NCBI RefSeq assembly: GCF_002078015.1
Contig: NZ_LWBP01000197.1
Span: 1 to 64,000, forward strand
Direction: 5' to 3'
DNA length: 64,000 nucleotides
DNA from: Niastella populi
Lineage (GTDB): Bacteria; Bacteroidota; Bacteroidia; Chitinophagales; Chitinophagaceae
Position 1 is the stretch's first letter; each line of letters opens with the position of its first letter. The position numbers and the translations under genes are program-made. Of this stretch, positions 8,229 through 63,597 are shown in pieces. The notes beneath the pieces were generated by a model. It worked only from the letters and a program-made list of their open reading frames with translations, did no database searches and was not told where the DNA came from.

Positions 8229-11200
8229 TTAAAAAGATGCATTAACACCGAAGGTGAAAGTTTTGGGTACGGGTATGGGATCGAGATCGATCCTTTCGGG
8301 ATCGGGGCTCTGGTACTTTTTGTTCTTAAACCAGAACAGGTTCTCGGCCATGGCAAACAACCGTAACGCCGTAAAGATGGACTTTGGTTTCACATTGTAT
8401 CCCAGTTGCAGATTACGCATTTTGAAATAGGATGTGCTCACCATAAAGTAATCGGAAGTGCGGCCTTCGTTGTTATTGTCTTTGAGAGTAAGCGCCGGAA
8501 TGCGGGAATTTGTGTTTTGCGGCGTCCAGGCGCTGAAAACACCGGGACCAACATTTTCGCGGCTTTTCATAAGGTTGTTGAATAAGGTATATACGTCGAA
8601 CCCTTTTCTACCCGCAACGCCTGAGCCGAAGATCGAGAGGTCGAACTTCTTATAAGTAAGATCAATCCGCAAGCCATATTCCAGAGCCGGCAAAGTAGTA
8701 CCGATCCAGGTTCTGTCGAGGTCGCTGATAAGTCCGTCGTTGTTCACATCTACATAACGAATTCTGCCCGGCCCCGCCCCGATCTGTGTGGGCGCTTTAT
8801 TCACTTCATCCTGTGACTGAAAAATGCCATTGGTTTTATAACCGAAAATATCGAACTGCGAATGACCGATGATGGTGTTGATGAGGTTGCCTGCATAGGC
8901 CGGACGAACACTTTCGGGCAACTCGGTTATTTTATCCCTGAAGTGCGCAAAGTTCAATCGTACATCATAACTAAAATCGCCCGTTCTTTCGCCGTGGTAA
9001 CCTACTACCAGTTCCCAGCCTTTATTGGTTTTTGAAGCGCCGTTCACCGCTTTTTGCTGCCCTTCGCCCAGGGCCGATGCAACCGGCGGCGTAATTAAGA
9101 TGCCAGTGGTTTTGCGGGAAAAATAATCGAACGAACCATAGATCCTGTTCTTCCACAATGTAAAATCGATACCCGCATTTATTTCATACGTTGTTTCCCA
9201 TTTAAGATCGGCATTCTGCGCCTGCGTTTGCACAAAACCCGAAGGCAGCGTGCCGGTATTGGCGCCGGAAAGCGAATATGCGGTGCCGATATTCATATAT
9301 TGTTCCCAGAAACCTGCGGTAAGCTGGTTCTGCGTGGTACCATATCTGGTATCGAAAAGGCCAAAGCGGGCCAGGTCGCCAATCTGCTGGTTACCTACCC
9401 GGCCGATACCGGCGCGTAATTTGATCTCAGAAAATAATTGCTGAAACTCCATGAAACTTTCCCTGTCTAACCGCCAGCCAATGGAAGCAGCGGGAAAAAC
9501 GCCGTAGCGGTTATTGGCGCCAAAACGGGACGAGCCGTCACGCCGGATCGTGAGTGCGGCGAGGTATTTATCGGAGAAATTGTAATCGATGCGGCCGAAC
9601 AATGAATACAACCGGTTACCGGTTGAGCCGCCTGAAACGATGGTATTACCGGTACCGGCGCTCAGCGTGAAATATTCTTCGGTTTGAATGGCAAAACCCT
9701 CTTTTTTCGTATACTGGAAATTGAGATCGGTTTTGATGAATTCGGTCCCGGCGAGGAATTTTACATTATGCCGGTCATTGATATTCCAGTTATACCGCAC
9801 CGTATTGGAGAAAGTATAACTGAGGTATTTGTTCTGATCGAGGGCAAGACTGTTGGTGGTTCTGTTGAACGCACCTTCGGTAAATGTGGGCAGAATTGTT
9901 TTATTGAGATACGTAGCATAATCAGCGCCCATCGTTGACCTGAAAAAAAGGTTTTTGACGGGTTGCAGTTCTACAAAGACACTTCCGAAGGTAGAGAGGC
10001 GGTTGGCGTTATCCCATCTTGACAAAAACTGCATGTGCAGGGGATTATTGCGGTCGGAGTATCCCCCACCCGATGCACCGGCAAAGGTGGCGCCATCGCT
10101 TTGATACACGGGAATCGTTGGCGCCAGCGTAACCGCGAGGAACGTGGTAGCAGCGCCGCCGATATCGCGCGCGGTAAGTGTTTCGTTCGAATTGGCTACG
10201 CGAACGTTTACACCAAACGTAGCTTTATTATCAAAAGCCCTGGTTATGGCATTGATGCTGCCGCTCATGCGCTCGTAACCGGTATACCGCAACATGCCGG
10301 TATTTTTCAAATAGCCGAGGTTCACTTCGAGCGATGAATTTTTATTACCGGCCGAAACGGTTAAACTGTTATTGCTGACGAGGCCGGTCTTATACATCAC
10401 ATCCTGCCAGTTAGTATTACCCGCGGGCGTAGCCGGATCACCGCCAACAAAAGGTTTAACGGTTACGCCATTCAGTATGGGGTTGTTGAAGTCGTTGTTC
10501 CAGTCGAAATCATATATTTCGCCGTAAGCGGAAGCCGGGTCCTGTTTATCGTTCACAGACGCCTGCCATAAGGCCTTACCGCGGTCAACCGCATTCAGCA
10601 TCTTAAACCTGACAGATCTTTCTGACTGTGCCGATAAACTGGAATTCAGTTGAAAATTTACTTTTCCATTGGTATTGCCGCCGTTTTTCGTTGTAACGAT
10701 AATAACGCCGTTTGAAGCACGGGAACCGTAAACGGAAGCCGCGGATGCGTCTTTCAACACCTGCACCGAAGCAATAACCGCGGGATCGAGATTTTGAAAC
10801 ACTTCCGGCCTGGTAGTGGGAATACCGTCGATAATATACAACGGGTCGTTAACACCCAGGGTATTCGATCCCCTGATGAGGATGCGCGAATTGGAGCCAT
10901 TGGGCGAACCGCCGTTCTTTTCAATATACAAACCGGCCACGCGGCCCTGCAGCGCCTGCATGGTATTGCCGGAGCAGTTATTTTTCACCGGCGTTAGGTC
11001 TACCACGGCAACTGCGCCGGTAAGGTCTTTTTTCCGCTGCGTTTGATAACCTATCACTACAAATTGTTCCAGTTCTTTTTCACCTTCTTCGACATCGATG
11101 GAGAGCGCCTGTGCATTGGCGGGAATTTTGATCGCCGTGGTTTTCATTCCAACAAATGAAACGGTAACCAGGTCGCCGGGTGCGGCCTCGATGCTGAATT

Positions 11201-11390: not shown

Positions 11391-11435
11391 GTTATAAGTT
11401 GTAAGTGCTAAGTTGTAAGTTTTAAGTTTTAAGTT
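11391..11435 (-). repeat. Degenerate 7-bp word array (AACTTAN) in the susC leader
   Basis: Read on the minus strand, the words AACTTAA, AACTTAA, AACTTAC, AACTTAG, CACTTAC, AACTTAT, AACTT follow each other without gaps. The array starts inside the last codons of the fructokinase gene and ends about 25 bp before the susC start. No reverse-complement partner is visible here, unlike the other word arrays in the window. Confidence 0.75.
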
Positions 11436-12370: not shown

Positions 12371-12385
12371 AATGAAATTATTTTA

Positions 12386-12523
12386 GGCTAAAGGCATAAG
12401 GCTGAAGGCTGAAGGCGGAACGCTGAACGCGGAACCCCGGAATTCGAAATGCCGGCATTTAATCGTAAATAACGTTTATCGCGAGCCGGCGTTAAGCATT
12501 AAGCGTTTAGCGTTAAGCAGTAT
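12386..12523. repeat. Two facing 7-bp word arrays between fructokinase and MFS genes
   Basis: From 12386 to about 12441 the words GGCTAAA, GGCATAA, GGCTGAA, GGCTGAA, GGCGGAA, CGCTGAA, CGCGGAA follow in register. From 12489 to 12523 come GCGTTAA, GCATTAA, GCGTTTA, GCGTTAA. The second set read on the other strand gives CGCTTAA-like words, so the two arrays can pair imperfectly. The centre holds two GCCGGC blocks. The whole stretch lies inside the minus-strand operon and would be transcribed. Confidence 0.75.
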
Positions 12524-13854
12524 TAATGAATTATCAGTGTCTTTTCTATTTGTTCCAGCGATTGACCCTTTGTTTCGGGCATCAGTTTCCATACGAACAG
12601 CAGTTGCAATACCATCATCACGGAAAAGAACAAAAAGGTATTACCGCCGCCCAGTCTTTCCGCCAGCATGGGAAACGAAAACGCAATGATGGCGGCCATG
12701 ATCCAGTGGGTAAAACTGCCCAGCGTTTGACCTTTTGCCCTTACCTGGTTGGGAAATATTTCGGCAATGAACACCCAGATGACGGCGCCCTGGCTGAAGG
12801 CGAAAAAAGCGATATATACCAACAGGTAAATGGTAACTGCCCAACCGTTGAAATTTTGTGTATAGAATGCCTGCGCTACGAGGCCGAGCGTTGAGATCAA
12901 CCCGATAGAACCGATCAGCATCAACGTTTTGCGGCCTATTTTATCAATAAAATTGATGGCTATAAGGGTGAAGATAAAATTGACGATACCGATGCCTACC
13001 GTGGAAAGCAAAGAAGAGGCGCGGCCGAGACCGGTCATTTCAAAAATGCGGGGCGCATAATAAATGATGGCATTGATGCCCGATACCTGGTTAAAAACGG
13101 CAAAGGCGATGGCGAGAAAAACCGGCACCCTGTATTTGCGGGTGAGCAACTGGTTTACATCACCGGCGCCGTTTTGAGCCTGCGTACTGTTTTTGATCTG
13201 TGCTATTTCTTCTTCATATCCAACAGGCATTATTATCTTTAAAACAGCGGTAGCTTCTTCCACTTTACCTTTCCGGAGTATGAGCCATCTGGGGCTTTCG
13301 GGCACCAGCTGAAGCAGGATGAGAAACAATAACGATGGAAAAGCCTGCACCCCCAGCATCCATCGCCAGGCGGTTTCCCCCTCCTGCCCGATGAGGTAAT
13401 TGGAAAAATAAGAAAGCAAGATCCCCAACACGATATTGAACTGGAACAGGGCAACCAGCCGGCCTCTTTTTTCGGCCGGGGCGATCTCGGAAATATACAC
13501 CGGGGCGGTTACCGAAGAAGCGCCAACACCCAGGCCGCCAAGGAAACGGAAAAGCAAAAACACATGCCAGTTGGTGGCAAAAGCAGTGCCCAATGAAGAG
13601 ACGAGGTAAATAGCCGCGATCAGTAATAAGGTATTTCTTCTCCCGATCCGTTCGCAGGGAATACTGCCGACGAGGGAGCCAATGACGGTACCAATTAAAG
13701 CAATGGAAACGGTGAGGCCATGTTCAATGGAAGAAAGCGACCAATAGTCCTGAATGGATTGCTCAGCGCCGGAGATCACTGCTGTATCAAATCCAAATAA
13801 AAACCCGCCCAACGCAACAACGATACTCCACAAAAAGACTTTTCTTTTGTTCAT
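12523..13854 (-). CDS. MFS sugar porter (probable fructose:H+ symporter)
   Basis: I choose the ATG at 13854 (MNKRKVFLWSIVVALGGFLFG); a longer frame from a TTG upstream lacks any sign of coding. The 443 residues form about 12 membrane helices with sugar-porter hallmarks: GRRNTLL after helix 2, RFLGGLGVGASS, PESPRWLI before the central loop, DKIGRKTLM, and PETKGQSLEQIE at the C-terminus. It would carry fructose across the inner membrane. It is the first gene of the fructan operon and divergent from the sensor gene, with a 296-bp control region between them. Confidence 0.9.
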   Translation of the reverse strand: MNKRKVFLWSIVVALGGFLFGFDTAVISGAEQSIQDYWSLSSIEHGLTVSIALIGTVIGSLVGSIPCERIGRRNTLLLIAAIYLVSSLGTAFATNWHVFLLFRFLGGLGVGASSVTAPVYISEIAPAEKRGRLVALFQFNIVLGILLSYFSNYLIGQEGETAWRWMLGVQAFPSLLFLILLQLVPESPRWLILRKGKVEEATAVLKIIMPVGYEEEIAQIKNSTQAQNGAGDVNQLLTRKYRVPVFLAIAFAVFNQVSGINAIIYYAPRIFEMTGLGRASSLLSTVGIGIVNFIFTLIAINFIDKIGRKTLMLIGSIGLISTLGLVAQAFYTQNFNGWAVTIYLLVYIAFFAFSQGAVIWVFIAEIFPNQVRAKGQTLGSFTHWIMAAIIAFSFPMLAERLGGGNTFLFFSVMMVLQLLFVWKLMPETKGQSLEQIEKTLIIH

Positions 13855-50727: not shown

Positions 50728-50850
50728 TTAAGAAATTAAGAATTAAAAATTAAGAATGAGAAATGAGAAAGGTAAAGTACAATCAGTAAGATGAGAAATG
50801 AAAAATCCTTTTTCATTTTTAATTTTTCATTTCTCATTAGTCATTTATTT
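50728..50850. repeat. Facing 7-bp word arrays filling the gap between SDR and DUF62 genes
   Basis: On the plus strand the words ATTAAGA, ATTAAAA, ATTAAGA, ATGAGAA, ATGAGAA run at 7-bp steps from about 50734. Later ATGAGAA and ATGAAAA are followed by TTTTTCA, TTTTTAA, TTTTTCA, TTTCTCA, TTAGTCA. The second set is close to the reverse complement of the first, so a long stem is possible. The array fills the whole intergenic region of 117 bp and would be transcribed with the minus-strand genes. Confidence 0.75.
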
Positions 50851-51772: not shown

Positions 51773-51884
51773 CACTCCCAAAATAAACGCAACGCTACGA
51801 AAGCGGCAAAAGTAAGAGAATGAAGGAGTTGGGGGGTTAAATTTGGGAAAAAGCTCTTGGAATATTTAAAAACTTTATAAGGTT

Positions 51885-51957
51885 GAACTCGTAGCTCAGT
51901 TGGTAGAGCATTACACTTTTAATGTAGGGGTCCTGGGTTCGAGTCCCAGCGGGTTCA
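51885..51957 (+). tRNA. tRNA-Lys (anticodon TTT), copy 1
   Basis: The 73-base gene folds as a tRNA. The acceptor GAACTCG pairs with CGGGTTC, the D arm is AGCTCAGTTGGTAGAGCA, the anticodon loop CTTTTAA holds TTT, and the T arm is CTGGG-TTCGAGT-CCCAG. CCA is not encoded. Confidence 0.97.
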
Positions 51958-51967
51958 CAAAAAATGC

Positions 51968-52000
51968 AGAGGCTATCAAAACCGGTAGCCTCTTTTTTTT
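51968..52000 (+). terminator. Hairpin with T-run after tRNA-Lys copy 1
   Basis: AGAGGCTA (51968-51975) pairs with TAGCCTCT (51986-51993), followed directly by more T. The same element follows copies 2 and 3 at +208 and +416, so each tRNA may end its own transcript or the hairpins may be processing sites. Confidence 0.7.
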
Positions 52001-52092
52001 AAAGTTAAAATAGCCGGCAGCTCCTTTCGATGGCTATCGGGGCGTGGGTTCGGAAAGTTCTTAAACGATAGGCGTAAGTTATTCATAAAATT

Positions 52093-52165
52093 GAACTCGT
52101 AGCTCAGTTGGTAGAGCATTACACTTTTAATGTAGGGGTCCTGGGTTCGAGTCCCAGCGGGTTCA
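52093..52165 (+). tRNA. tRNA-Lys (anticodon TTT), copy 2
   Basis: Identical to copy 1, 208 bp downstream, followed by the same hairpin. Confidence 0.97.
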
Positions 52166-52175
52166 CAAAAAATGC

Positions 52176-52208
52176 AGAGGCTATCAAAACCGGTAGCCTC
52201 TTTTTTTT
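52176..52208 (+). terminator. Hairpin with T-run after tRNA-Lys copy 2
   Basis: Same stem and T-run as after copy 1, shifted by 208 bp. Confidence 0.7.
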
Positions 52209-52300
52209 AAAGTTAAAATAGCCGGCAGCTCCTTTCGATGGCTATCGGGGCGTGGGTTCGGAAAGTTCTTAAACGATAGGCGTAAGTTATTCATAAAATT

Positions 52301-52373
52301 GAACTCGTAGCTCAGTTGGTAGAGCATTACACTTTTAATGTAGGGGTCCTGGGTTCGAGTCCCAGCGGGTTCA
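52301..52373 (+). tRNA. tRNA-Lys (anticodon TTT), copy 3
   Basis: Identical to copy 1, 416 bp downstream, followed by the same hairpin. Confidence 0.97.
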
Positions 52374-52383
52374 CAAAAAATGC

Positions 52384-52416
52384 AGAGGCTATCAAAACCG
52401 GTAGCCTCTTTTTTTT
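52384..52416 (+). terminator. Hairpin with T-run after tRNA-Lys copy 3
   Basis: Same stem and T-run as after copy 1, shifted by 416 bp. Confidence 0.7.
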
Positions 52417-52508
52417 AAAGTTAAAATAGCCGGCAGCTCCTTTCGATGGCTATCGGGGCGTGGGTTCGGAAAGTTCTTAAACGATAGGCGTAAGTTATTC
52501 ATAAAATT

Positions 52509-52581
52509 GAACTCGTAGCTCAGTTGGTAGAGCATTACACTTTTAATGTAGGGGTCCTGGGTTCGAGTCCCAGCGGGTTCA
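52509..52581 (+). tRNA. tRNA-Lys (anticodon TTT), copy 4
   Basis: Identical to copy 1; the downstream spacer is different from the other three and carries its own hairpin. Confidence 0.97.
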
Positions 52582-52591
52582 CAGAAAATTA

Positions 52592-53482: not shown

Positions 53483-56400
53483 ATGAATTTTAACCGAGTG
53501 AACAACATAGTGGGTTGGATTGTGTGCCTGATTGCGTGTAGCGTGTACGTCCTCACTATGGAACCAACCGGCAGTTTCTGGGACTGCGGTGAATTTATCA
53601 GCAGTGCCTATAAACTCCAGATCCCCCACCCGCCCGGCGCCCCGCTCTTTATCCTGCTGGGCCGCTTTTTCATCGTCCTTTTTGGCGACAATCCCGCCAA
53701 TGCCGCACTCGGCGTGAATTTCATGAACGCCATCGCCAGTGGGTTCACCATATTGTTCCTCTTCTGGACCATCACCCATTTTGCCCGCAAACTGGTAAAA
53801 ATAGATGGAACCGACTATTCTCAACAACAACTGATCACCATTATGGGTGCCGGCGCCGTGGGCGCCCTGGCCTATACTTTTTCCGATTCTTTCTGGTACA
53901 GCGCCGCAGAAGGTGAGGTGTACGCCCTGTCGTCCCTGTTCACCGCCGTGGTTTTCTGGGCCATTTTGAAATGGGAACACGAGGTTGACCAGGAAAGCAA
54001 AACCGACGGCCATAGATTTTCCCGCGCCGACCGCTGGTTGATATTTATATTTTATATGATGGGTTTGTCGATAGGGGTGCACTTATTGAACCTGTTGACC
54101 ATTCCCGCCATTGTAATGGTATATTATTTCAAACGTTATAAAGTTACCCGCCGGGGTATCATTGCCGCCTTCTTACTTGGCTGCGTTATCACCGGCCTGG
54201 TACAGGTAGCCATCATTCAATGGTCAATTAAGGGCGCCGGTCAGTTCGATATCTTCTTCGTGAACAGCCTGGGTACCCCCTTCTTTGTTGGTTTCGGTAC
54301 CTACTTTGTACTGCTGACCATTTTGCTGATATTCGGTCTCCGGTTCACCGAAGCCCAGGTGAAGAAGTTCACCGTCTTCCCTGTTTGGTTATCGGCCATC
54401 GTATTGCTGTTCTGTTTCCCTTTCATTCACTCAGCCGGCACCTTTATTGCCCTGGTATTGGGCCTGGGTGTACTTATCGCTATTTGCTACTACTCAAAAG
54501 ATAATATCATTTCATTTTTGAAGATCGGCCTCTGGTCGGCCATCTTCCTCATCCTGGGTTATTCAACCTATTTCACTACCCTGGTACGGTCATCGGCCAA
54601 CCCTTCGGTAGACATGTACAATGTTGATAACCCGGTGAGCCTTGTTGGTTACCTGAGCCGTGAGCAATATGGCGACTGGCCGGTGGCATATGGACCCGAC
54701 TTCGTTTACCGCTCGCCCTTCGTAACTACCGGCGACCTGTATGTAAAAGGAGAAGACAAATACGTGGTAGCCGGTAAAACCCGTAAACAGGACTTCAGCG
54801 CCAAACCTTCGGAAGAAGATAAACAACAGCTGGCACAACAACACCCCGACTGGGATGTAGATAAAATAGGCCCGCACATTTTCCCGCGGATGTGGGATAA
54901 TGGCAACGAGCGCAACCAGGAGTATGTATACCGCACCTTTGGTGGTTTGTCGGCCGATGAACAACCAGGCTTTATGAACAACATCCGGTACTTCCTCGAT
55001 TACCAGTTCCGCTGGATGTACTGGCGTTATTTCATGTGGAATTTTGCCGGTAAACAAAACGACCTGCAGGGCTTTGGCAACCGCCGTGATGGTAACTGGA
55101 ACAGCGGCATCAACTTTATCGATAAAAACATATTCGGCCATAGCACGCCTGCCGAACTGCCCGAAACGGCCGGTTCAAAGAACAAAGCCAATAACAAATT
55201 ATTCTTCCTGCCATTTATATTGGGCGTATTAGGATTTTTATTCCAGTTGAACCGCAACAAACGCGACTGGCTTATCAACTTCCTGTTATTCTTCTTTACC
55301 GGTTTGGCCATCGTCATTTATCTGAACCAAAGCGGCCAGCAACCACGTGAACGTGATTATGCGTATGTGGGCTCGTTCTATGCATTTGCCGTTTGGATCG
55401 GCCTTGGCGTAATTTGGGTACGCGAGCAACTAAGCCGTTACCTCAAAGGGCCTGTTACCGATTACCTGGCATTGGGCGTTTGCTTACTGGCAGTACCGGT
55501 ACTGATGGCTTCACAGGAATGGGACGACCATGACCGTAGCAAAAAAACACTGGCCCGCGACATTGGTAAAGATTACCTCCAAAGCTGCGCCAAAGAAGGT
55601 ATCCTTATTTCATTTGGCGATAACGACACCTACCCCCTCTGGTATGCGCAGGAAGTGGAAAAAAACCGTCTCGACCTGCGGGTGATCAACTACAGCCTGT
55701 TGGGTACCGACTGGTACATCAATGAGCTGCGTTACAAAGTGAATGAAAGCGCGCCAACCGATGTGATCTTCACCCCCGAACAAATTCAGGGCGATAAAAG
55801 GAATGTGGTGTTCACGGCATCTTACCTCAGCCGCATGGGTTATAACGCTCCGCTGGCCGGGTTCGATCAAAATAAATACTACGACCTGTACGACCTGCTG
55901 AAGAACGTTACCGGCAGCGATGACCCCAAATACACCATGCAAATGAATGAAGAGGATTTTGGGAACATTCTGCCCGTTAACAAAGTGAGCGTTCCGGTTG
56001 ATGTGGAATGGGTGAAAAAGAATATCCCGCTCAATCCCGGCGACAGCGTGGTAAGCGAACTGAAACTCGACATTAAACGAAGCTACCTGCAAAAGAATGA
56101 CCTGGCTGTGCTGGCCATTATTGCCGGTAATAAATGGAAACGTCCGATTTACTTCACCTCTACACAGGAGCTGGAAGACCTGGGCCTCGAGAAATACGTA
56201 CGTATGGAAGGCCTTGCTTACCGCCTTGTACCTGTTGAAGGCACCAACGTGCAGCTGGATGTATCGTACAAAAACGTGATGGAAAATTTTGCATATGGCA
56301 ACGCCGGCAAACCAAATGTTTACTTCGACGAAGAGAACCGCCGCCACCTGAACAGCCTTCGCCAGGCGCATGCCTTCCTGGGCATGGCGCTTGTTGATGC

Positions 56401-56938: not shown

Positions 56939-57125
56939 TTTAAGGGCGTACTCAACAATTCCTACCCTTCTTTGTTGTAGTGTTAACATTAATTACTTAC
57001 CTCACCGAATGAATATTAATGCTTAAATTGGGTTAGGTCCCCGAAAAAAGTAAGGCGTGCCGCTGTTATTGGGGCGACTCAAATGAACTGTGGCACGGTT
57101 ATTCAGCAAATAAAACAAGTAACCA

Positions 57126-58223
57126 GTGATAGGACACCATTTTACCAAATTCGATCCCCGTCAACAGGGCAAATCGAAATTCGAACAGTTGCTTGATGTT
57201 TTCATGCAATTGCTTACCTATACCAATGGCGATGTGAGCGAAGCACTGAACTGGATGAACCAGCTCGACAAAGAGTATGAGCTTACCAACAACGAATATG
57301 GCATGGGCGATTTCATTGATGAGTTGAAAGAGAAAGGATACATTCAGGAAAACCAGATCAGCGGTGAAATAAAGATCACCAGCAAAACCGAACAGGGCAT
57401 TCGCAAACGTTCGCTTGAAGAGATCTTCGGCAAGCTGAAGAAAACAAAACAGGGCGATCACCATACCTTTAAACCCGGTTCGGGCGATGAAGTAAATCCC
57501 GAAACCAGGCCGTTCCAGTTTGGCGATACGCTTGAACAGATCGATTTCACCACCTCCATCCTCAATGCACAGATCAATCACGGAATTGAAAGTTTCAATA
57601 TGCAGGAGGATGACCTCGCCATTCGCGAAACCGATTTCAAATCGCAAACCTCTACCGTACTGATGATCGATATTTCCCATTCGATGATCCTGTATGGAGA
57701 AGACCGGATAACACCGGCAAAAAAAGTAGCGATGGCGCTCAGCGAACTCATCACAACAAAATATCCCAAAGACACGCTCGACATCGTTGTGTTTGGCAAC
57801 GACGCCTGGCCGGTGGAAATAAAAGACCTCCCCTATTTACAGGTAGGCCCATACCATACCAATACCGTAGCCGGGCTGGAAATGGCCATGGATATTTTGC
57901 GCCGCCGCAAAAATCCCAACAAACAGATCTTTATGATCACAGATGGGAAACCAACCTGTTTAAAAATAGGCAAAAGGTATTACAAGAACAGTTTCGGGCT
58001 CGACAGGCGCATCACCAACCGTTGTTTGAACCTGGCCGCACAATGCAAAAAATTAAAAGTGCCTATAACCACTTTCATGATCGCCACCGATCCGTATTTG
58101 CAGCGGTTTGTACAGGAGTTCACCGAAACCAACAGCGGCAAAGCCTTCTTTGCCTCGCTCGACCGGTTGGGCGCCTTCATATTCCGCGATTTTGAAAATG
58201 GAAAAAGAAAAACAGTGTACTAG
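57126..58223 (+). CDS. von Willebrand factor A domain protein (partner of a MoxR/Mg-chelatase-type ATPase)
   Basis: The first start codon is GTG at 57126, giving 365 residues. Residues 1-170 are helical (KFEQLLDVFMQLLTYTNGDV) and of unknown function. Residues about 175-350 form a vWA domain with the MIDAS motif DISHS near 181, a Thr in YHTNT and Asp in ITDGKP near 270. Together with the ATPase downstream it recalls the ChlD/ChlI or CoxE/CoxD and MoxR pairs, which remodel proteins or insert metals. The ATPase gene follows 96 bp later, separated by a word array. The biological target is unknown. Confidence 0.82.
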   Translation: MIGHHFTKFDPRQQGKSKFEQLLDVFMQLLTYTNGDVSEALNWMNQLDKEYELTNNEYGMGDFIDELKEKGYIQENQISGEIKITSKTEQGIRKRSLEEIFGKLKKTKQGDHHTFKPGSGDEVNPETRPFQFGDTLEQIDFTTSILNAQINHGIESFNMQEDDLAIRETDFKSQTSTVLMIDISHSMILYGEDRITPAKKVAMALSELITTKYPKDTLDIVVFGNDAWPVEIKDLPYLQVGPYHTNTVAGLEMAMDILRRRKNPNKQIFMITDGKPTCLKIGKRYYKNSFGLDRRITNRCLNLAAQCKKLKVPITTFMIATDPYLQRFVQEFTETNSGKAFFASLDRLGAFIFRDFENGKRKTVY

Positions 58224-58225
58224 CG

Positions 58226-58310
58226 ATTTAGGATTTTGAGATTTGGGATTTGGGATTTATTGTAATGCTGTAGTCTTAGAAATCTCAAAATCAGAAATCA
58301 TAACTGCATT
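58226..58310. repeat. Facing GATTT word arrays between the vWA and ATPase genes
   Basis: GATTT recurs at steps of 7, 8, 7, 7 bp from about 58229 (GATTTAG, GATTTTG, AGATTTG, GGATTTG, GGATTTA). After a spacer, AAATC recurs at steps of 8 and 7 bp, the reverse complement. The two sets share GATTTTGAGATTT when aligned, so a stem can form in the transcript joining the two genes. Confidence 0.7.
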
Positions 58311-59882: not shown

Positions 59883-59965
59883 TTACGAATATTGAATTTC
59901 CAATTTTGAATGTTGAAGTGAAGACCCGGAATACGGGATCGCCACTTCAACATTCAACTCTTCGG
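59883..59965. repeat. Facing TTGAA word arrays with a strong stem-loop after the ATPase gene
   Basis: Words TTGAATT, TCCAATT, TTGAATG, TTGAAGT run at 7-bp steps. The arm 59906-59920 is perfectly complementary to 59943-59957 (15 bp), and the loop contains a smaller ACCCG/CGGG hairpin. It can act as terminator of the ATPase gene. Confidence 0.75.
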
Positions 59966-61838: not shown

Positions 61839-62507
61839 ATGCATCGAAAAACCGCCGTTGTATTGGGCGCTACCGGATTAATTGGTGGGCACCTGGTACA
61901 GGAACTGTTAGAAAATGAATTTTTCAGCAAGGTGAGAATATTGACACGCAGACCCATTACCCTTAATCATCCCAAAGCCGAGGTTCAGGTGGTTAATTTT
62001 AATGATGAAAAAGACATTGCAGCCAGAATAGATATCGGCGATGTGATCTTTTGCGCCATTGGTACCACGCGAAAAAAAGTAAAGGGCAATAAGACCGAAT
62101 ACCGCAAGGTCGATTATGATATTCCCATCATCACCGCCCGGCTGGGCGTTCAGCATGGCTTCAATCAATTTTTACTGGTGTCAGCTATTGGCGCCAATCC
62201 GCTCGCGGCCAATTTTTACCTGCAACTAAAAGGCTGTATCGAGGAAGACATAACCGCGCTTCCCTTCGAATGCATTCATATTTTCAGGCCGTCGGTGCTC
62301 ATGGGCAAAAGAGAAGAATTCAGGCTGGGTGAAAAGATCGGCGAAAGCATTATGAAAGCAGTTTCATTCCTGTTATTGGGCGGCTGGCGCAAATACAAAC
62401 CCATCGCCGCCGCCGATGTTGCGAAATCGATGGTAGCCGCCGCCAATAAAGAAACACCGGGCGTACATATGTATGAGTATGACGAAATGAAAAAACTAAT
62501 TTGCTAA
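61839..62507 (+). CDS. NAD(P)-binding Rossmann protein (HTATIP2/NmrA-like)
   Basis: The 222-residue protein starts KTAVVLGATGLIGGHLVQELLE, with the GATGLIG nucleotide-binding motif, followed by LTRRPITLNHPKAEVQVVNF and IFCAIGTTRKKVKGNKTEYRKVD. This pattern fits oxidoreductases of the HTATIP2/YbjT type. The substrate is not known. A word array follows it. Confidence 0.82.
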   Translation: MHRKTAVVLGATGLIGGHLVQELLENEFFSKVRILTRRPITLNHPKAEVQVVNFNDEKDIAARIDIGDVIFCAIGTTRKKVKGNKTEYRKVDYDIPIITARLGVQHGFNQFLLVSAIGANPLAANFYLQLKGCIEEDITALPFECIHIFRPSVLMGKREEFRLGEKIGESIMKAVSFLLLGGWRKYKPIAAADVAKSMVAAANKETPGVHMYEYDEMKKLIC

Positions 62508-62655
62508 TGTGATAATTAGCTAATGTGCGAATTCTTCGGTTCGAAGCTCATGCTTTTTCCAAATTATCTCTGCCTATGGCAATTTTCATGAAGGCGAATA
62601 CCCTGTATTTCATTAGCAAATTAGCACATCAGCTAATTAGCACATTATCGCAGTA
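62500..62655. repeat. 8-bp word arrays (CTAATGTG) in inverted pair
   Basis: After the Rossmann gene CTAATGTG, ATAATTAG, CTAATGTG, CGAATTCT run in 8-bp register. From about 62610 the reverse-complement set TTAGCAAA, TTAGCACA, TCAGCTAA, TTAGCACA, TTATCGCA follows. The region between has no gene. Confidence 0.75.
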
Positions 62656-62788: not shown

Positions 62789-63490
62789 ATGAAAACAACG
62801 TACCTGCAATTGCCGGCGGCCGCCGTACTGGCAGCCTTTACCCTTCTTTCATGTCAGAAAGATATGTCGGGCAGATCCGGATCTGTTTCCGATCTCAACG
62901 GTTCCTCAAAAGTTACACCATTATCAACAGTTGAAATTTCCTGCGGACAACATCGCACGCAAACACAGGGCGGCTGGGGTGCAAAACCCTCAGGCAATAA
63001 CCCAGGCGCTTACCTGCACGCGAATTTCGATGCCGCTTTTGGCGAGTTAACAGTTGGTTGCGCCCCGGAAAACTATTATATCAGGTTAACTTCGGCCCAG
63101 GCTGTCACCGATCTGTTGCCTACCGGCGGCAAGGCTGCGGCACTGACAGCCATCACTACCGATCCTGCATCGGTTAAGAGTGTGCTGGTTGGACAAATTG
63201 TTGCGCTTAAACTCTCCGTTGGTTTCGATTATAATGATCCCAATTTTGGCGAATCATCAGTTCCATTGGGAAAAATGATCATCGGCAGTGGAGTTTTTAA
63301 AGGTTATGCTGTTGTTGACTTCCTCAATATTGCAGAACAGGTGTTGGGCGGATGCAACACAGCATTCACTCCTGCGCAGGTCAATGAAACCGCTTCTGCG
63401 ATCAATGAAAACAATGTAGACGGCAAAACCGATAACGGATTCCTGGTTTGTCCTGATGGCGGTGGCGGCGAAGATCCGATTGAATACTAA
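62789..63490 (+). CDS. Hypothetical secreted lipoprotein
   Basis: The 233-residue protein has a lipobox FTLLSCQKD (Cys near 22). The mature part contains TQTQGGWGAKPSGNNPGAYL and NFDAAFGELTVGC, a motif set I have seen in surface proteins of unknown role, and ends in a short Gly/Glu-rich tail. Four Cys residues in the mature part may form disulfides. I cannot assign a function. Confidence 0.7.
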   Translation: MKTTYLQLPAAAVLAAFTLLSCQKDMSGRSGSVSDLNGSSKVTPLSTVEISCGQHRTQTQGGWGAKPSGNNPGAYLHANFDAAFGELTVGCAPENYYIRLTSAQAVTDLLPTGGKAAALTAITTDPASVKSVLVGQIVALKLSVGFDYNDPNFGESSVPLGKMIIGSGVFKGYAVVDFLNIAEQVLGGCNTAFTPAQVNETASAINENNVDGKTDNGFLVCPDGGGGEDPIEY

Positions 63491-63597
63491 TTTGTTAATA
63501 TGCTAATGTGCTAATGCAACTTGGGCTTCCTGCGGAAGCCCAAGTTGCGTAATTTATTCCTGTATTTTCATTATCCCATTAGCACATTACATTGCGT
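63491..63597. repeat. 8-bp words (CTAATGTG family) flanking a perfect stem-loop
   Basis: CTAATTTG, TTAATATG, CTAATGTG, CTAATGCA lie before a perfect 15-bp hairpin (63516-63530 with 63534-63548), and TCCCATTA, GCACATTA lie after it. The words match those at 62500-62655. The hairpin lies between convergent genes and probably terminates both. Confidence 0.75.

What the first reader, a model, noticed from the sequence alone, without database searches (positions are those of the whole stretch)
12386..12523. Word arrays that face each other: one of several intergenic heptad palindromes
Words of the GGCTGAA type run in 7-bp register, then a centre with two GCCGGC blocks, then GCGTTAA-type words that are near reverse complements. 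The same plan with unrelated words recurs at 50728-50850, 58226-58310, 59883-59965, 62500-62655 and 63491-63597. The shared property is period and symmetry, not sequence, which no listed feature type explains.
Basis: partly seen in the sequence, partly recalled or inferred. Interest (0 to 1): 0.75.

Follow-up and report, generated by a model that had tools for sequence, protein, structure and literature searches.

The report
Dispersed palindromes with seven-letter repeat arms
The facing seven-letter word arrays belong to families of short palindromic repeats scattered between the genes of this bacterium and its relatives; they look like small mobile DNA elements, and one family sits beside a little-known transposase gene that could be what moves them.

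Summary
At all six loci the 7- or 8-bp period beats 300 shuffles; self-complementarity beats 150 shuffles at five, and 3 of 150 reach it at 12386. In 800 kb of this genome arrays of period 7 and 8, and hardly any other, fill intergenic DNA. The reading 'symmetry, not sequence' fails for the main locus: 12385-12526 belongs to a dispersed family that a model finds in all 10 genomes searched. A second family, with GTTTRTK arms, has a well conserved centre, 78-88% identical over about 110 bp. The genus is Niastella. G-richer words read inward from gene borders, 76:15. The same gap often holds different families in different species. Arms do not co-evolve within copies, which argues against selection for a hairpin. 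Best account: non-autonomous mobile palindromes that arrive whole and then decay. Candidate mobiliser: a single-copy HUH transposase with the 'subclass 1.2' motif, in 10/10 genomes, with heptad arrays just upstream in 9/10; a second Y1 transposase type has none in 9 loci. Facing heptads are published in Xanthomonas, so this is a new variant of a known kind.

The parts
12385..12435 (+). left arm of the 12386 element: heptads of the type (G/C)GC(T/G)GAA reading inward
   Evidence: TRF, lag scan, family alignment
12436..12487 (+). centre of the 12386 element, partly shared with other copies (consensus CCCGAATTTCG..GAATTTATTCGG..ATTTCGGGAG); holds the first copy-specific GCCGGC block and part of the second
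12488..12520 (+). right arm, GCGTTAAGC-type heptads (reverse-complement sense)
12385..12526 (+). whole element, full-length match to family model R1 (133 bits; this copy was in the training set)
50728..50771 (+). left arm, ATTAAGA/ATGAGAA heptads
50806..50846 (+). right arm, TTTTTCA/TTTCTCA heptads
58225..58258 (+). left arm, GATTTGG/GATTTTGA words; element absent at this site in 5 of 9 congeners
58280..58299 (+). right arm, AAATCTCAAAATCAGAAATC
59887..59919 (+). left arm, GAATATT/GAATTTT/GAATGTT heptads
59944..59958 (+). right arm, ACTTCAACATTCAAC
62496..62533 (+). left arm, octads of AATGTG(A/C)T type; overlaps the end of the upstream ORF
62603..62655 (+). right arm with inner CTGTATTT (reverse complement of the recurrent AAATACAG linker)
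63487..63516 (+). left arm, AATGTGCT octads; overlaps the end of the upstream ORF
63516..63548 (+). perfect hairpin between the arms; four congeners without arms (G001, G004, G005, G009) have a hairpin alone in this gap, judged by eye
63560..63591 (+). right arm with inner CTGTATTT linker

Best explanation
The arrays are arms of non-autonomous, dispersed palindromic repeat elements, roughly 75-185 bp long: an arm of about 2-10 degenerate 7- or 8-bp words, a centre of about 20-60 bp, and an arm of reverse-complement words. Shown: three families (12386 type, GTTTRTK type, ATGGTSA type) are dispersed in Niastella genomes; copies correspond end to end (arm, centre, arm); occupancy of the same gap differs between species; arrays lie almost wholly in intergenic DNA. 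Inferred: elements arrive as whole units, mobilised in trans by an enzyme that acts on single-stranded hairpins; arm length then changes in steps of one word; copies decay without upkeep and survive where they break no gene. Most likely mobiliser (inferred, weaker): the single-copy HUH/Y1 protein present in all ten genomes.
For: Whole-element homologues of the GTTTRTK element in its own genome and in six congeners, 78-88% over about 110 bp, both strands; 17 rows aligned with a shared centre, two of them one place. 12386 family: 16 places at about 61-71% identity in the loaded sequence, 13 of them aligned, mean column identity 64%, centre weaker than arms. Matches in ten genomes: R1 12-129, R2 0-132 (9 of 10 genomes), R3 18-80. 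Clade-specific numbers of the GTTTRTK pattern, overlapping matches: 222 in G000, 244 in G003, 93, 86, 15, 7, 2, 1, 0, 0 in the other congeners, 1 in 29 other genomes. Presence/absence: 58225 present in 5 of 10 species, gap of 20-33 bp in the other 5; C1:354261 gap about 0 bp in G009, filled in the other eight compared. Same gap, different family: 74 of 112 co-occupied genome pairs. One gap holds the same centre in both orientations. Own arms pair no better than arms swapped between copies, as expected from descent from a family master.
Against: No target-site duplication or clean empty site was found; flanking genes of congeners are about 76-90% identical and gaps realign poorly. No insertion was seen happening. 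Gap sharing exceeds permutation (112 vs mean 58, max 81 of 2000), which could mean a needed function rather than permissive sites; 16 of the 26 gaps come from a stretch chosen because it is rich in arrays. The 12386 family's centre is weakly conserved, and much of its model score may come from the arms. The tendency of G-richer words to point inward and the AATACAG linker shared by unrelated word families are not explained by simple insertion. 10 of 23 facing pairs have unrelated words, so not every facing pair is one intact element.
Confidence: 0.72

Rival explanations
1. The palindromes are kept by selection as bidirectional RNA stem-loops (terminators, 3'-end protectors or insulators); words may drift as long as the arms pair.
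For: The five loci folded beat most shuffles on the + strand (z -2.0 to -7.1); some species carry a plain terminator-like hairpin in the same gap, judged by eye; gaps are shared between species more than permutation allows.
Against: Own arms pair no better than swapped arms: 20.2 vs 21.0 in 29 copies of R2, 14.7 vs 15.3 in 23 copies of R1. RNAalifold gives -4.6 and -1.2 kcal/mol with 2 of 14 pairs doubly changed in each alignment. Arrays are as frequent between co-directional genes (48/244) as convergent ones (9/44), and occur in divergent gaps (6/59). T-tailed hairpins: co-directional 4/48 with arrays vs 26/196 without, convergent 2/9 vs 10/35, divergent 1/6 vs 8/53; no clear exchange of one for the other (crude scan).
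Confidence: 0.2
2. Simple sequence made in place by polymerase slippage, with no mobile element.
For: Narrow period 7/8 and in-place change of array length between orthologues with conserved flanks on both sides (G006 56941-57816 vs G007 54493-55601); a 7-nt slippage step was proposed by Mrazek, as quoted in PMC4679880.
Against: Does not give shared centres, facing arms, inward polarity or a genome-wide vocabulary.
Confidence: 0.1
3. Two-ended healing of DNA breaks: each 3' end is extended with words by a telomere-like or template-slipping polymerase, then the ends are joined.
For: Would explain inward polarity at both borders whatever the gene direction and facing pairs with unrelated words, 10 of 23.
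Against: Shared centres and end-to-end homologues; inner flank conserved while array length changes. Three RVT_1 hits in the genome, none with an array in its roughly 3.5-kb locus.
Confidence: 0.06

Closest known systems
GGGAATC / GGGGA(T/C)T heptamer repeats of Xanthomonas and Nostoc (PMC4692102; passages read)
   Same: Period 7, mostly intergenic; 70 (Xcc) and 75 (Xac) pairs in convergent orientation; intergenic repeats lie nearer the 5' neighbouring ORF irrespective of ORF direction, the same inward placement
   Different: There one G-rich, quadruplex-forming word type per genome, and only a few paired repeats in Nostoc; here many words, most without G-tracts, periods 7 and 8, and dispersed families with centres. 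Quadruplexes cannot be the general cause
TAACTGA heptamers of Beggiatoaceae, Cyanobacteria and five Bacteroidetes (PMC4679880; abstract and sections 3, 8 and 10 read)
   Same: Intergenic heptad arrays shared by Cyanobacteria and Bacteroidetes; for some sites relatives have shorter gaps without repeats
   Different: One word, direct repeats, in the main species mostly just before start codons; one indirect repeat only
Class I/II seven-nucleotide repeat stem of the Nostoc tRNA-Leu intron P6b (PMC4476775; passages read)
   Same: Complementary heptads forming a stem; the Class I motif TDNGATT, rotated, fits GATTTGG here; repeated replacement of one class by the other is reported
   Different: One locus inside a group I intron; origin unknown
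REP sequences and REPtrons (PMC6006769 passages; PMC3116915 and PMC3733652 seen in search listings only)
   Same: Dispersed intergenic palindromes, species-specific, linked to a low-copy Y1 transposase
   Different: REPs are 21-65 nt with a GT[AG]G foot; these are longer, heptad-armed and without a conserved foot; the protein is closer to IS200
BrickBuilt MITE of Porphyromonas gingivalis (PMC4596501; passages read)
   Same: Bacteroidota MITE that contains a minisatellite
   Different: 23-nt unit in one tandem array with leader and tail, not two facing heptad arms

Membership tests
Dispersed palindromic repeat (REP/MITE-like) in the broad sense | many copies, intergenic, inverted arms | tested here: met
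REP (canonical) | 5' GTAG/GTGG foot and 21-65 nt length | tested here: not met
   no conserved foot seen in alignments A1, A2 and A3 (by eye); the aligned copies, some with flank, are about 105-185 nt
REPtron | array-linked transposase of TnpAREP type with a Y..NP motif | tested here: not met
   array-linked protein: YIEKQEEHH; NCBIfam REP_Tyr_transpos 22.7 bits, cut-off 80. A second Y1 protein with YIH.NP exists but has no arrays in its loci, 0 of 9
MITE | target-site duplication and fixed terminal inverted repeats tied to an IS | tested here: inconclusive
   arms are inverted but of variable length; no clean empty site
Heptanucleotide STRR-type repeats | intergenic degenerate 7-bp tandem arrays | tested here: met
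   the name STRR is recalled
TnpA-Y1 subclass 1.2 (PMC6006769), for the protein in L207 | Y---Q--HH signature, low copy number, found in Bacteroidetes | tested here: met
   YIEKQEEHH; one strong Y1_Tnp hit in each of 10 genomes
TnpA-Y1 subclass 1.2 | subclass-specific C-terminal domain and tree position | not tested
   no reference sequences or profile were at hand

The most novel reading that the evidence does not exclude
The orphan HUH endonucleases of TnpA-Y1 subclass 1.2, described in 2018 as lacking IS properties and mostly confined to Bacteroidetes and Cyanobacteria, are the mobilisers of heptad-armed palindromes, forming a third kind of HUH/palindrome system beside IS200/IS605 and REPtrons. 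Facing heptads in both phyla would be the footprint of one system. The protein would recognise the hairpin strand by its 5' G-containing words, which would explain the inward polarity.
Probability: 0.25. Interest if true: 0.8.

Novelty: new variant of a known kind. Interest (0 to 1): 0.58.

Why it matters
Heptamer arrays have been reported piecemeal in Cyanobacteria, Beggiatoaceae and Xanthomonas as simple repeats, possible regulators or G-quadruplexes. Here, with nine related species, they resolve into families of whole palindromic elements with turnover at shared sites, which points to mobility. If the subclass 1.2 HUH protein moves them, two orphans (an enzyme without a substrate, a repeat without an enzyme) become one testable system.

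Tried and rejected
Hairpin selection through compensatory change: rejected for two families by the own-versus-swapped arm test (29 and 23 copies that I picked from the tables, the other rows left out). At orthologous gaps the same test gave: 351947, swapped pairs as good in 0 of 3000; 354261, 150 of 3000; 343794, 239 of 3000; 63490, 501 of 3000; 58223, 2573 of 3000. In the first gap species hold different families, so this shows that both arms of an insertion belong together, not upkeep of pairing. G-quadruplex as common cause: rejected, most words have no G-tract. Terminator-only placement: not supported. Reverse transcriptase as source: three RVT_1 hits, no arrays in their loci. Canonical RAYT: not met; the second Y1 protein, with the YIH.NP motif given for subclass 2.6, has no array of score >=12 in any of its 9 loci (no ORF of the expected size was found in one of them). 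Rfam: no match on the arrays at gathering score.

Weak or contrary results. The ORF caller is crude there, but this gives little support outside the genus. Within the genus the rule is weakest behind stop codons of forward gene pairs, 28:19. The data mix 800 kb taken without regard to arrays with orthologous stretches, so counts are not independent. Cyanobacterial plasmids (250 kb in three records) have arrays in Oscillatoria and Planktothrix, none in 50 kb of Anabaena WA102; none in 49 kb of Bernardetia. In Oscillatoria other periods also score (6, 9, 10, 12, 15: 1-2 each); one Planktothrix array lies inside an annotated NRPS gene. Polarity there was judged by eye: most but not all read inward. 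The word-based polarity test used strands that I chose per word and is biased; the G>C test is the one to rely on.

Full report
What the window is. The window is contig C196 of an 8.6-Mb draft genome. Its nine congeners include G005, whose single contig of 9,033,684 bp equals the size given for Niastella koreensis GR20-10, and G003, whose contigs of 725,285 and 1,926,258 bp equal two Niastella caeni scaffolds. So the genus is Niastella, phylum Bacteroidota; the name rests on those lengths.

All six loci exceed 300 shuffles for period 7 or 8; five exceed 150 shuffles for inverted complementarity, and 12386-12523 is reached by 3 of 150. In 354 intergenic regions of 800 kb the enriched base periods are 7 (37 regions) and 8 (18 regions) with their multiples; one N-containing region counts in every row, real and shuffled; coding blocks give 2 and 0. 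At a lower threshold 63 of 353 N-free regions have an array. Gene calls are from my own codon-usage caller, which misses some short genes.

Words are a shared vocabulary. GTTTRTK, ATGGTSA, AAGTTRT, AGCTKCA, GCTGAA and AGTTCAY heptads, and octads AGGCAACR, GTTRACNR, AATGTGMT and GATTTTGA, recur at many loci. A 301-bp query around 12386 matched 51 places in its own genome at E<=0.001, itself included, with 40 of 144 candidates scored. A 21-base GTTTRTK pattern has 222 overlapping matches in G000, 244 in G003, 93 and 86 in G006 and G007, 15, 7, 2 and 1 in G002, G004, G005 and G009, 0 in G001 and in the 61%-complete G008, and 1 in 29 other genomes of the order; the pattern read backwards gives 4 in G000 and 9 in G003. 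That is a clade-specific amplification.

Elements, not just arrays. The facing array at C1:351978-352088 has homologues over its whole length in its own genome and six congeners, 78-88% identical, on both strands because it is a palindrome. Seventeen rows, two of them one place, align with a centre TTCTTTAATGCGCGAGTTCAAAATTAATTTCGAGCCTCAAAGCGCGGCAGC between arms of about 2 to 10 heptads. The 12386 element has 16 same-orientation places at about 61-71% in the sequence I had loaded; 13 of them are in the alignment, whose centre is weaker than its arms. Models R1 (12386 family) and R2 (GTTTRTK) match 129 and 105 places in G000, and 12-119 and 0-132 in the nine congeners. These counts can include both strands of one palindrome, contain the training copies, and are capped by 150 scored candidates per genome; they are not copy numbers.

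Polarity. Taking G>C as the mark of a strand, arrays within 60 bp of a gene border read inward 76 times and outward 15 times; borders of array-free gaps give 272 to 212. Over all signed arrays it is 105 to 37 (6 of 148 have no sign), inward in the majority in every gap class, weakest behind stop codons in forward pairs (28:19). Adjacent arrays are G-then-C 23 times and C-then-G 3 times among 47 pairs. Of the 23, 13 share a word family and 10 do not. The same placement was reported for G-rich heptamers in Xanthomonas and Nostoc (PMC4692102, passages), so the rule is not new; that it extends to words without G-tracts is, as far as the papers I saw go.

Turnover at shared sites. At 58225 the element is in five species with the same word and absent in five with gaps of 20-33 bp. 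At 12386, G003 has a shorter element with related words, G001 and G008 have gaps of 36 and 26 bp. At C1:351947, G000, G006 and G007 carry GTTTRTK, G003 a GAATRTT palindrome, G002 and G009 GTTRACNR, G004 GTGAGTT, G001 AAGTAGG, and G005 a plain hairpin (families named by eye). Over 26 orthologous gaps, 112 genome pairs are both occupied against a permuted mean of 58 (maximum 81 in 2000), 74 with different families and 38 with the same. Some gaps therefore receive elements repeatedly; whether they are permissive or need a palindrome is not settled.

No arm-to-arm upkeep. In 29 copies of R2 the own arm pair scores 20.2 against 21.0 for swapped arms, and in 23 copies of R1 14.7 against 15.3; random pairings were at least as good in 4768 and 4648 of 5000. 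Complementarity is inherited from the family, not kept up copy by copy. This is the main evidence against a selected hairpin.

A linker. AATACAG follows the inner end of arrays of several word families: 15 of 142 inner flanks against 0.25 expected; AATACA is in 23 inner against 5 outer flanks. In composite gaps it separates modules of different words. I have no explanation.

Candidate mobiliser. Each of ten genomes has one strong Y1_Tnp hit, in an open frame of 146-171 aa, in the same neighbourhood, 85-93% identical to the G000 protein. Its motifs are DHMH and YIEKQEEHH. In nine of ten the 170 bp upstream of its start hold a heptad array at score >=10 (eight at >=12); two arrays are flagged in seven, and in G001 and G008 the second arm is seen by eye only. 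Words are of ATGGTSA type in six (G000, G001, G003, G006, G007, G008) and of CGGCAAT type in three (G002, G004, G005); in G002 and G005 the outer arm is not G>C. G009 has none. A control of the same kind: a second, weaker Y1_Tnp protein of about 190-200 aa with a YIH.NP motif, found in seven genomes (9 loci), has no array of score >=12 in any of its roughly 3.2-kb loci. The ATGGTSA element is dispersed too: model R3 gives 18-80 matches per genome (same cautions). PMC6006769 defines a TnpA-Y1 subclass 1.2 by Y---Q--HH, low copy number, generally no IS200-type ends, and restriction mostly to Cyanobacteria and Bacteroidetes (passages); the Niastella gene fits the points I could test. The same paper gives a subclass 2.6 in Bacteroidetes, motif YIH[QN]NP, flanked by 'atypical secondary structures'; the second protein resembles that one, which makes it a rival mobiliser in principle. 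NCBIfam puts the array-linked protein nearest IS200 (50.8 bits, cut-off 55) and far from REP transposases (22.7, cut-off 80). The link is circumstantial: the ten sites share ancestry, other gaps are also often occupied (up to 7 of 9 genomes), and I could not test co-occurrence across phyla.

Beyond the genus. A GTTTRTK scan of the genome collection stopped at its limit with 108 stretches; of the 80 titles shown, 66 name Bacteroidota or Cyanobacteria, the rest scattered groups. Oscillatoria and Planktothrix plasmids show facing 7/8-bp arrays at annotated gene borders. The polarity count on the 47 usable stretches was only 29:18.

Literature. Searches for heptanucleotide or heptamer repeats with Bacteroidetes, for tandem repeats with Chitinophaga, Niastella with repeats, REP or MITE with Bacteroidetes, and long simple repeats listed no report of these Niastella families; the library holds open-licence papers only.

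Noticed in passing
window 51883-52589: Four tRNA-Lys(ttt) genes in a 208-bp tandem repeat, 99% alike.
   Followed up: no
L041 (G000:C209:250683-251398): A nearly perfect array of about 90 copies of an AAAGAGGC octad between two called genes.
   Followed up: no
L018/L019, C1:199629-200033, and similar composite gaps: Modules of different words separated by one or two copies of AATACAG, mostly on the strand that reads inward (41:10 within 100 bp of a border).
   Followed up: partly
L207, 1340-1902, and orthologues L252-L260: Single-copy HUH transposase gene with a Y---Q--HH motif and heptad arrays just before its start in 9 of 10 genomes; none at a second Y1 gene type, 0 of 9 loci.
   Followed up: partly
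L026, 10737-10857 (G000:C1:350737-350857): Another dispersed repeat of about 110 bp, with hits in G001, G002, G003 and G006, up to 89%, in a gap without 7/8-bp arrays.
   Followed up: no
L093 (Oscillatoria plasmid) 8598-8976 and L097 (Planktothrix plasmid) 13019-13295: Facing arrays of GGGAGAGT/CTCTCCC and GATTTAC/GTAAATC at gene borders, same plan as in Niastella.
   Followed up: partly
L150 and L130: GTTTRTK arrays in a Heimdallarchaeota MAG and a Paenibacillus genome by record title; contamination not excluded.
   Followed up: no
window 62496-62507, 63487-63490, 11429-11435: Arrays overlap the ends of the neighbouring ORFs, so the last codons are part of the repeat.
   Followed up: no
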